Assembly: GCF_036346615.1 (NCBI RefSeq) | Contig: NZ_CP107836.1 | Span: 1,736,001-1,800,000, forward strand | Length of the DNA: 64,000 nt | Origin: Streptomyces sp. NBC_00523 | Lineage (GTDB): Bacteria; Actinomycetota; Actinomycetes; Streptomycetales; Streptomycetaceae | Direction of reading: 5' to 3' | Part shown: in pieces, positions 2,857-3,926 of the stretch | Numbering within the stretch: position 1 is the first letter of the stretch | Layout of the letters: each line of letters starts with the position of its first letter | Translations under genes and position numbers: made by a program | Notes under the pieces: model-generated | What the model was told of the DNA's origin: nothing | Database searches by the model: none | Seen by the model: the letters and a program-made list of their open reading frames with translations, nothing else

Positions 2857-2887
2857 GGGCCCGGGGGCGTAGCCGGCCCCCGAGCCC
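2857..2887. terminator. hairpin terminator between convergent units
   Basis: GGGC-C-CGGGGGC pairs with GCCCCCG-A-GCCC around a 7-base loop, an 11-bp GC stem with one mismatch. It lies 20 bases after the aminotransferase stop and directly beyond the 3' end of the structured RNA at 2894-3053, so it can end transcription from both sides. No U-tract follows, as is common in Streptomyces. Confidence 0.6.
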
Positions 2888-2893
2888 TGTGAT

Positions 2894-3053
2894 GCCGCCT
2901 GCATGGCACGCCGGCACGTTTAAGGTCCCGTATCAGTTTTATGTCGTCGCGTCCTGCCTTTAGACGACCGCGGACCGAAGCTCCACGGGCCGGAGTCGAA
3001 CCGGCATCTCGACGCCCACGGGCACGGGCCCGTTTGATCCGGCGATAGGCGGC
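2894..3053 (-). ncRNA. structured RNA with a circularly permuted tRNA mimic (Y-RNA-like)
   Basis: Read on the minus strand, every element of a tRNA is present in permuted order. CGTCG (3014-3010) pairs with CGACG (2949-2945) as an anticodon-like stem. Then AGAT serves as variable region, followed by the T-arm GCCGG-TTCGACT-CCGGC (3005-2989). The acceptor strand CCGTGGA (2988-2982) pairs with TCCGCGG (2974-2968; 7 bp, one G-U), closed by a GCTTCGG cap. Next come T8 C9 and the D-arm GTCT-AAAGGCA-GGAC (2965-2951) with canonical A14 and G18G19. Outside it, three more helices nest: GGGCCCGT/ACGGGACC, CGCCGG/CCGGCG and GCCGCCT/AGGCGGC (3053-3047 with 2900-2894). This is the architecture known for bacterial YrlA-type Y RNAs, where the acceptor end is a closed hairpin. 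No Ro60 (TROVE) gene is in the window; the upstream neighbour is the DUF7873-like gene. True ends are unknown. Confidence 0.72.
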
Positions 3054-3154
3054 GCATGCTGAGCCTGGAGCGAGAGTCTGAGATTGATCACGGTCTCCAC
3101 CGGAGCCCGCTTCGTCACGACAAACTTCAGTTTCAGCTTTGCGCTCCTCGCGCA

Positions 3155-3194: not shown

Positions 3195-3926
3195 TCACCC
3201 GAAGAGGTAACCGAAGACGGCGTCACCCACCCTCTGGTCCGTGACGTCCGCGCCGTTGGCCTCCTCGCGGGCGAACTTGACGGCCTGCTGCAGCTTCTCG
3301 ACCCGGTCGAGCAGTTCGTTGACCCGGCGCGCGGGCAGCGCCCCGGAGAACTTCACGGTCGTCCAGTAGCCGATCGGCACGTCCTCGTAGTACACCTCGA
3401 CCTGCGCCGGGTGCTTCTCGGTGGCCTCCGCCTTCACGTGGTTGCGGGGCACCTTCTTCGTGCGCAGGGTGCGGACCGGCTCGGTCTTCCACGCGTCGGT
3501 CGACGGGTCCTGGGCCCACGCCTCGGAGGCGTCGAGCACCGGCAGCTTGCGGACGAAGGTGTTGACGTCGATGAGCTGCTTCTCCAGGAAGAGCAGGTAG
3601 GACACCGGTACGTCACTCACCAGGACGCGGCCGTCGACCGTGACGTCGGCGCGGGCCGTGCAGTTCGCCCAGTCCTTCGTGGCGGTCACGTCGAAGAGGC
3701 GGGTGAGCGTCTTCGCGGTCTCCCGCAGCACGTCCTCGGCCTTGACCTGCACCGGCGTCGACTCGGGCGGCAGCTGCTCGCCCTCCTCGTCCTTCGGCTG
3801 GTAGGTCCGGGAGATCCCGGCCAGGAGTCCGACCTTCTGGAGGCCGTGATGCGCCGCCGTCAGGTCCTGGTGTGCCTTGGACTTGACGCCCTTCTCCACT
3901 GCGATGATCTGATTGAGTTTCGCCAC
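3195..3926 (-). CDS. conserved protein of unknown function (DUF7873-like)
   Basis: 243 aa from a GTG start; the conserved-looking N-terminus VAKLNQIIAVEKGVKSKAHQ sets the start although the ribosome site is weak. I recall this sequence type as a widespread actinobacterial family listed as DUF7873; that name is from memory. No signal peptide, membrane helix or known catalytic motif is visible. It is a mixed alpha/beta soluble protein with an N-terminal helix pair (residues 1-40), a central charged region (TLRTKKVPRNHVKAEATEKH, about 150-170) and a long amphipathic C-terminal helix (LPARRVNELLDRVEKLQQAV). The basic patches would suit RNA binding, but that is inference. The gene is followed on the same strand, 141 bases on, by the tRNA-mimic RNA, suggesting a two-component unit. 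Confidence 0.8.
   Translation of the reverse strand: MAKLNQIIAVEKGVKSKAHQDLTAAHHGLQKVGLLAGISRTYQPKDEEGEQLPPESTPVQVKAEDVLRETAKTLTRLFDVTATKDWANCTARADVTVDGRVLVSDVPVSYLLFLEKQLIDVNTFVRKLPVLDASEAWAQDPSTDAWKTEPVRTLRTKKVPRNHVKAEATEKHPAQVEVYYEDVPIGYWTTVKFSGALPARRVNELLDRVEKLQQAVKFAREEANGADVTDQRVGDAVFGYLFG

What the first reader, a model, noticed from the sequence alone, without database searches (positions are those of the whole stretch)
2894..3053. A complete circularly permuted tRNA mimic downstream of a conserved gene of unknown function
On the minus strand the sequence contains all tRNA helices with canonical loop residues (T-loop TTCGACT, D-loop AAAGGCA, T8), but with the 3' half first and the acceptor stem closed by a GCTTCGG cap, and three nested outer helices. 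The chance of 7+4+5+5 bp in tRNA spacing plus 8+6+7 bp outside is small. The design is that of YrlA-type bacterial Y RNAs, which normally accompany Ro60; here the neighbour is a DUF7873-like gene. A pairing of this protein family with a tRNA-mimic RNA would be a new ribonucleoprotein or RNA quality-control system, as far as I know.
Basis: partly seen in the sequence, partly recalled or inferred. Interest (0 to 1): 0.88.

Follow-up and report, generated by a model that had tools for sequence, protein, structure and literature searches.

The report
tRNA-mimic RNA paired with DUF7873
Beside a protein gene of unknown function, this Streptomyces-type genome and many phages encode a folded RNA tipped by a tRNA shape whose halves are swapped; in related bacteria gene and RNA occur together, and they are predicted to form a particle that likely decoys or captures an enzyme that handles tRNAs.

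Summary
Directly after the DUF7873 (PF25283) gene lies a structured RNA. In relatives it has two long arms, each tipped by a tRNA opened in its anticodon loop, 3' half before 5' half. The window's copy lacks head 1 (73-nt gap against L001) but keeps its arm. A head descriptor finds heads in 85 of 85 Streptomyces-group and 80 of 89 viral loci (shuffles and gene bodies 0, reverse complement 1). In 36 aligned sequences 24 of 25 pairs have changes on both sides, including all 9 of an outer helix that no filter required. In 295 genomes of the genus, gene and RNA occur together in 142, apart in 3 damaged remnants, neither in 150. In phages the pair often sits in tRNA arrays. It resembles bacterial Y RNAs (YrlA), but the Ro60 neighbour and the YrlA score are missing. 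Best reading: a tRNA-mimic ribonucleoprotein, DUF7873 holding the arms, the heads acting as decoy or tether for a tRNA-binding enzyme. Structure and linkage are shown; binding and function are inferred.

The parts
3195..3926 (-). DUF7873 (PF25283) gene, GTG start, 243 aa, predicted partner protein
   Evidence: Pfam 398 bits; AlphaFold model pLDDT 92.8, three of five models above 91
3141..3153 (-). short hairpin GCGC-GAGGA-GCGC at the 5' side of arm 1
   Evidence: sequence and fold
3108..3140 (-). arm 1, 5' strand (S1), hexamer-periodic YTNARN motif
   Evidence: S1 pairs with S2a better than swapped partners in 46 phage loci; motif
3091..3107 (-). stump where tRNA head 1 is missing (73-nt gap relative to L001)
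   Evidence: alignment to L001
3056..3088 (-). arm 1, 3' strand (S2a)
3047..3053 (-). arm 2 helix H1, 5' strand (pairs with 2900-2894)
   Evidence: fold; weak covariation at one column pair, S2:81 with S3:88
3039..3044 (-). arm 2 helix H2, 5' strand (pairs with 2914-2909)
   Evidence: covariation of S2:95-100 with S3:56-61
3023..3031 (-). arm 2 helix H3, 5' strand (pairs with about 2930-2922)
   Evidence: 9 of 9 pairs with changes on both sides
3010..3014 (-). anticodon stem of head 2, 3' strand CGTCG, then variable loop AGAT 3009-3006
2989..3005 (-). T arm of head 2 (loop TTCGACT)
2982..2988 (-). acceptor stem of head 2, 3' strand
2975..2981 (-). cap GCTTCGG joining the acceptor strands; G at the N73 position
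2968..2974 (-). acceptor stem of head 2, 5' strand
2951..2965 (-). D arm of head 2 (loop AAAGGCA)
2945..2949 (-). anticodon stem of head 2, 5' strand CGACG
2924..2930 (-). arm 2 helix H3, 3' strand
2917..2923 (-). conserved TTAAACG after H3
   Evidence: alignment
2909..2914 (-). arm 2 helix H2, 3' strand
2894..2900 (-). arm 2 helix H1, 3' strand
2857..2887 (-). GC-rich hairpin after the RNA, possible terminator without a T run
   Evidence: fold; the T-run scan finds no terminator

Best explanation
This is a folded RNA whose tips are circularly permuted tRNAs, encoded directly after DUF7873, and the two likely form a ribonucleoprotein that is predicted to use its tRNA heads as decoy or tether for a tRNA-binding enzyme. 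Shown: each head has T, acceptor, D and anticodon stems with tRNA spacing, but is opened in the anticodon loop and joined across the acceptor end; heads sit on long arms; in the genus, gene and RNA occur together; head 1 is missing in a good part of the Streptomyces group, with different stumps, while its arm stays; many phage copies lie in tRNA arrays. Inferred: the RNA is transcribed with the gene; DUF7873 binds the arms, since the arm is kept even without its head; the heads are read as tRNA by the elbow and acceptor but cannot decode, because the anticodon loop is replaced by the arm, and often cannot be charged, because the acceptor end is closed by a short cap. The likely effect is to occupy or recruit an enzyme that acts on tRNA (an anticodon nuclease, RNase P, tRNase Z or an exonuclease) and so protect or police the tRNA pool during phage growth. 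The Streptomyces copies look like one domesticated lineage of a phage system.
For: Heads downstream of DUF7873 in 107 of 110 loci, controls 1 (reverse complement), 0.0 (shuffles), 0 (gene bodies); in 174 distinct loci 85 of 85 Streptomyces-group and 80 of 89 viral. Covariation: 24 of 25 pairs with double changes, 96.1% of cells paired against 65.1% shuffled, 0 of 500; outer helices H3 and H2 rank among the top covarying pairs though nothing selected for their pairing. Anticodon stem: 36 of 70 phage heads 2 with 5 of 5 pairs against 5.0 on average (at most 14) with swapped partners; head 1 21 of 46 against 4.9 (at most 10). Arm 1 pairing -18.3 against -15.3 kcal/mol swapped, sd 0.47. Co-occurrence 142 both, 1 gene only, 2 RNA only, 150 neither; all 143 pairs on the same strand, median 212 nt from protein match to R1 match; the 3 exceptions are truncated remnants with both partners damaged. 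Arm 1 motif kept in all 30 rows called headless in the Streptomyces group (the window counted twice, two rows visibly keep the head). tRNA arrays in 5 of 8 named phages read: Mimi, GodonK, NiceHouse, Vibrio K479, Rhizobium TM2_3B. R1 finds the RNA after DUF7873 in Nonomuraea and seven named phages at 38.8-99.8 bits. Precedent: YrlA's tRNA-like domain has been proposed as a competitive inhibitor of an anticodon nuclease (PMC7790460, passages).
Against: No transcript, binding or phenotype data. No convincing fold match for DUF7873, and its median net charge is -1, although R155, K157, K158 and R161 are basic in 88-100% of sequences. An anticodon nuclease decoy without an anticodon loop is an imperfect substrate mimic. 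N73-CCA is encoded in 33 of 64 phage heads 1 and 31 of 72 phage heads 2, which suggests that some acceptor ends are opened and used. Nine of 89 viral loci show no head by the descriptor. R1 gives only 24.9 bits for the Vibrio phage, no more than at junctions of ordinary neighbouring tRNA genes in the same run (28.3, 27.7, 24.6 bits). Three of the 8 named phages are not in a clear array. Genetic linkage alone could also reflect a cis element.
Confidence: 0.5

Rival explanations
1. A split, permuted tmRNA-like RNA: RNase P and 3' processing open the caps, one or both heads are charged, and the RNA with DUF7873 (in the place of SmpB) works on ribosomes.
For: Same topology as a permuted tRNA-like domain with a large insert in place of the anticodon loop; encoded CCA in about half of the phage heads; weak Rfam matches to the permuted beta_tmRNA at head 2 of the Klebsiella and Vibrio phages (24.5 and 25.3 bits, threshold 84); head 1 of phages is nearest to tRNA-Leu (37 of 62 best, background 51 of 317).
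Against: No conserved tag frame, by eye: the upstream frame shifts between Streptomyces copies and S2a holds a stop in phages such as L141; G3:U70 in only 1 of 66 and 3 of 93 heads; caps as short as 4 nt; only 1 of 85 Streptomyces-group heads 2 has CCA.
Confidence: 0.12
2. Permuted tRNA precursors that are rejoined into ordinary working tRNAs, as in unicellular algae.
For: Full tRNA core, encoded CCA in many phage heads, location in tRNA arrays.
Against: By 2014 known permuted tRNA genes were from algae and one archaeon, with maturation tied to a splicing endonuclease (PMC3978253, abstract); the arms are conserved far beyond the tRNA; the arm persists where the head is missing; closed caps.
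Confidence: 0.07
3. A cis-acting element in the 3' part of the DUF7873 mRNA that senses tRNA-binding factors and controls that gene.
For: On the same strand shortly after the gene in 143 of 143 pairs.
Against: Size and two-headed design go beyond known 3' elements (recalled), and regulation of a single gene does not explain the phage tRNA-array setting. Not excluded.
Confidence: 0.12
4. An ordinary bacterial Y RNA of the YrlA family that serves Ro60.
For: Same permuted head; sub-threshold YrlA matches, 19.2 bits here and 32.9-38.2 bits in 4 of 6 named phage loci.
Against: Below the 69-bit threshold in the window, 20 relatives and 6 phage loci, and such scores are unspecific: the model also gives 38.4 bits at two neighbouring tRNA-Asn genes of the same genome. 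The motif GGTGCG-AGGCAG of the TROVE-linked RNAs is in 0 of 200 downstream stretches; the one TROVE gene is 4.9 Mb away; 10 of 22 genomes without a TROVE hit have DUF7873.
Confidence: 0.03

Closest known systems
Bacterial Y RNA, YrlA (Rfam RF02553), partner of Ro60/Rsr
   Same: Order T arm, acceptor, D arm (Rfam alignment): a circularly permuted tRNA closed at the acceptor and extended by a helix; lies by the gene of a partner protein; Y RNAs are reported from mycobacteriophages too (PMC12282133, passages).
   Different: Two heads on two arms in one RNA (one missing here), different outer helices, no motif of the TROVE-linked RNAs, no TROVE neighbour, partner DUF7873, below the Rfam threshold.
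Two-piece (permuted) tmRNA
   Same: Permuted tRNA-like domain with a large RNA in place of the anticodon loop; some encoded CCA.
   Different: No tag frame seen, no alanine G3:U70, two different heads, DUF7873 instead of SmpB as neighbour.
Circularly permuted tRNA genes of algae and one archaeon
   Same: 3' half before 5' half with an intervening stretch.
   Different: There the ends are rejoined to make a tRNA (PMC3978253, abstract); here the open ends run on into conserved arms of a larger RNA.
Listeria P100-like phage Rsr with abundant small RNAs
   Same: Phage-encoded RNA-binding protein with possible Y RNAs nearby (PMC12282133, passages).
   Different: The protein is Rsr/Ro60-like, not DUF7873.

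Membership tests
YrlA / bacterial Y RNA | circularly permuted tRNA-like domain | tested here: met
YrlA / bacterial Y RNA | score over the Rfam gathering threshold of RF02553 (69 bits) | tested here: not met
   19.2 bits in the window; none at gathering in 20 loci; best 38.2 bits in 6 named phage loci
YrlA / bacterial Y RNA | motif shared by TROVE-linked RNAs of the genus (GGTGCG-AGGCAG, read by eye in 5 of the 6 RNAs of L226-L228; that it is the Ro60 site is inferred) | tested here: not met
   0 of 200 downstream stretches, 174 of them distinct
YrlA / bacterial Y RNA | Ro60/TROVE gene next to it | tested here: not met
   neighbour is DUF7873; only TROVE hit at 6.64 Mb against 1.74 Mb here
YrlA / bacterial Y RNA | binds Ro60 | not testable with these tools
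   needs pull-down
two-piece tmRNA | Rfam tmRNA score over threshold at this RNA | tested here: not met
   none at the RNA in the window or 20 loci; beta_tmRNA 24.5-25.3 bits against 84
two-piece tmRNA | conserved tag reading frame | tested here: inconclusive
   by eye: frame shift and stops in the candidate segments; no systematic frame test
two-piece tmRNA | alanine identity pair G3:U70 | tested here: not met
   1 of 66 heads 1, 3 of 93 heads 2
permuted tRNA gene | halves swapped around an intervening stretch | tested here: met
permuted tRNA gene | matures to a normal tRNA | not testable with these tools
   needs RNA sequencing
DUF7873 (PF25283) | Pfam score over its cut-off of 27 bits | tested here: met
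   398 bits

The most novel reading that the evidence does not exclude
A new class of phage-born ribonucleoprotein: DUF7873 plus a two-armed RNA with two swapped-half tRNA heads, one built on tRNA-Leu, carried inside phage tRNA arrays as a counter-defence that captures host tRNA-cutting enzymes on uncuttable decoys, and adopted once by Streptomyces, where head 1 has been shed repeatedly.
Probability: 0.22. Interest if true: 0.93.

Novelty: new variant of a known kind. Interest (0 to 1): 0.85.

Why it matters
A folded RNA for which no Rfam 15 family reaches its threshold is tied to a protein family of unknown function with at least 6,932 homologues. That protein occurs in 73 GenBank phage records; in the 60 records listed it is 'hypothetical protein' or the record has no annotation. 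It shows that the permuted-tRNA head of Y RNAs is a module that occurs with a protein without a TROVE match, and that it can be doubled. It makes two open questions testable: what tRNA-mimic RNAs do in bacteria, and why large phages keep non-tRNA genes inside tRNA arrays. It also gives DUF7873 a likely ligand.

Tried and rejected

Selections. One search counted 79 of 87 new loci, some of them contigs already fetched; distinct loci are counted. One search kept 98 of 115 two-headed loci after removing repeats. A3 holds 36 sequences: 24 of 26 phage and 11 of 61 Streptomyces candidates, plus the window; candidates had short caps and recognisable anchors, so T, acceptor and D pairing there is partly by construction, while H3 pairing was free. 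In one search full-length R1 matches of 54.4 bits or more were counted; the list was cut off at about 54 bits. The Streptomyces head 1 'Phe' votes are probably self-hits of ARAGORN calls on the RNA. L155 carries a stop in DUF7873.

Full report
The sequence. Head 2 of the window is a tRNA in swapped order: T arm, acceptor 3' strand, a 7-nt cap, acceptor 5' strand, T8, D arm. The fourth tRNA stem, the anticodon stem (CGACG with CGTCG, one base after the D arm, four before the T stem), closes it, and helices H3, H2 and H1 follow. The tRNA is therefore opened in its anticodon loop, and the open ends run on into a long arm. On its own the sequence proves little: its folding energy is ordinary for its composition (z -0.76) and Rfam reports only a sub-threshold YrlA match of 19.2 bits.

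The neighbour. The gene 3195-3926 (-) is DUF7873, PF25283, at 398 bits, with no PHROG, NCBIfam or PADLOC match. Of the 80 closest loci kept from the genome collection 79 are named Streptomyces; the protein search found at least 6,932 homologues, and 73 GenBank phage records carry it.

The RNA in relatives. In 110 loci the 700 nt after the gene were scanned for T arm, 7-bp acceptor and D arm in permuted order: 178 heads in 107 loci, against 1 in reverse complements, 0.0 in shuffles and 0 in gene bodies. Over 174 distinct loci, 85 of 85 Streptomyces-group and 80 of 89 viral loci have at least one head, and 101 have two. The nine viral misses include one without downstream sequence (L111) and two in which parts of the RNA are visible by eye (L127, L170). 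The common plan is arm 1 with head 1, then arm 2 with head 2. The window lacks head 1: against L001 a single 73-nt gap takes out the head from T stem to D arm and leaves the arm closed by a short loop. Of 87 Streptomyces-group rows, 30 are called headless and all 30 keep the arm 1 motif (the window is counted twice, and L038 and L045 visibly keep the head). Twelve truly headless rows have a readable stump, of seven different sequences, which suggests several losses.

Covariation. With segments aligned by sequence only, the strongest covarying column pairs are the tRNA stems and the outer helices H3 and H2; arm 1 does not appear there. On 36 sequences RNAalifold finds 25 pairs, 24 with changes on both sides. 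96.1% of cells pair against 65.1% in shuffles, the covariation score is 0.834 against 0.234 (0 of 500), and slid versions reach at most 0.182. T, acceptor and D pairing was required when loci were chosen, so those percentages are partly built in; H3 pairing was not required and has 9 of 9 pairs with double changes. The anticodon stem, also not required, is perfect in 36 of 70 phage heads 2 against 5.0 on average with swapped partners, and in 21 of 46 heads 1 against 4.9. Arm 1 pairs more strongly with its own partner strand than with those of other loci (-18.3 against -15.3 kcal/mol, sd 0.47).

Linkage. A covariance model of head 2 plus H3 (R1) was run over 295 genomes of the genus and set against DUF7873 in the same genomes: both in 142, gene only in 1, RNA only in 2, neither in 150. 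In the 143 pairs (one genome has two) the R1 match starts 30-355 nt, median 212, after the end of the protein match, on the same strand; the 30-nt case, G570, has only a partial protein match. The three exceptions are remnants: two have lost the gene and the 5' part of the RNA, one has a gene cut at its start and an RNA cut at its end. The count takes full-length matches of 54.4 bits or more; two 54.0-bit matches (G591, G562) on genomes without a gene hit were left out, the list was cut off there, and partial matches near 55 bits in three genomes proved to be YrlA-like RNAs. R1 also finds the RNA after DUF7873 in Nonomuraea (99.8 bits) and in phages of Arthrobacter, Gordonia (two), Rhodococcus, Pseudanabaena, Rhizobium and Klebsiella (94.3 to 38.8 bits); the Vibrio phage scores 24.9, no better than junctions of ordinary neighbouring tRNA genes in the same run (up to 28.3), and rests on reading by eye. 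GodonK is probably also in the training set as L180, since the contig lengths agree.

Setting. In Mimi, GodonK, NiceHouse, Vibrio K479 and Rhizobium TM2_3B the gene lies inside tRNA arrays; Ziko has two tRNAs nearby, Kp24 one doubtful one, and the Pseudanabaena phage none listed. In a protein tree of 86 rows the 13 Streptomyces sequences form one side of a branch (SH-aLRT 94, quick method) apart from 73 viral ones, which fits a single entry into Streptomyces; the direction is inferred. The aminotransferase next to the RNA in the window is near it in 28 of 80 Streptomyces loci.

What the heads resemble. Head 1 of phages is nearest to tRNA-Leu (37 of 62 by best match, 48 of 62 by majority of five; 51 of 317 reference tRNAs are Leu); head 2 has no fixed type. 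U8 is kept in 66 of 66 heads 1 and 87 of 93 heads 2. N73-CCA is encoded in 33 of 64 and 31 of 72 phage heads 1 and 2, in 11 of 55 Streptomyces-group heads 1 and 1 of 85 heads 2. Caps can be as short as 4 nt, so many heads cannot have a free 3' end without cutting.

Known relatives. YrlA is the nearest known design. In the same genus YrlA-like RNAs occur in pairs: in L226 before a TROVE (Ro60) gene (hit), in L228 before a gene with a similar start, by eye, and in L227 with the neighbour not checked. They share the head but have their own outer helix and a GGTGCG-AGGCAG motif, seen in five of the six by eye, that is absent from all 200 DUF7873 downstream stretches. Sub-threshold YrlA scores are not specific: 38.4 bits arise at two neighbouring tRNA-Asn genes of the window's genome. 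That genome has one TROVE gene 4.9 Mb away, and DUF7873 occurs in 10 of 22 genomes without a TROVE hit and 22 of 39 with one (p 0.44). So it works like a Y RNA module but is not a YrlA. The paper on the Salmonella RNA repair operon suggests that the YrlA head may act as a competitive inhibitor of an anticodon nuclease (PMC7790460, passages), which is the precedent for the decoy reading here.

Protein. A second AlphaFold run with 78 sequences gives pLDDT 92.8 with three of five models above 91: long helices and a long beta hairpin. No PDB match is convincing. Invariant residues include H172, K158 and N224, and R155, K157, K158 and R161 are basic in 88-100% of sequences; the median net charge is -1. 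RNA binding is inferred from linkage only.

Verdict. The existence, structure and genetic pairing of this RNA are well supported. That it is a ribonucleoprotein is likely; that it is a decoy or tether for a tRNA-acting enzyme is the best guess at about one half, with tmRNA-like, cis-element and tRNA-precursor readings open.

Noticed in passing
L209 1375-1903 (Gordonia phage GodonK): A tmRNA match (Rfam 90.3 bits) lies where the record annotates a tRNA-His at 1454-1515: an apparent missed tmRNA.
   Followed up: no
L104 4078-4162: An 85-nt match to the 374-nt tmRNA model (62.9 bits) shortly after the DUF7873 RNA: a tmRNA-like RNA without room for a tag.
   Followed up: no
L226 2202-2532, L227, L228 984-1309: In Streptomyces-group genomes two tandem YrlA-like RNAs (33.9-39.8 bits, below the Rfam threshold), in L226 before a TROVE gene and in L228 before a similar gene start by eye.
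   Followed up: partly
G611 C1 26964-27686 and 9777627-9778349: Two copies of gene plus RNA near both ends of one chromosome, probably in terminal inverted repeats.
   Followed up: no
L213 4013-4097 (Klebsiella phage Kp24): The annotated suppressor tRNA-TTA, also called by ARAGORN, is likely a misreading of the region at head 2.
   Followed up: partly
L209 4994-5122 (-): Annotated gene 151 of GodonK lies over the RNA on the other strand and is probably spurious.
   Followed up: no
window 3108-3140 and 3056-3088: The T and A of the YTNARN motif recur about every 6 nt in both strands of arm 1 across phages; why a helix keeps such a period is unexplained.
   Followed up: partly
L210 5374-6246 (Rhodococcus phage NiceHouse): A Band 7/SPFH protein gene sits close to the RNA inside the tRNA array.
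   Followed up: no
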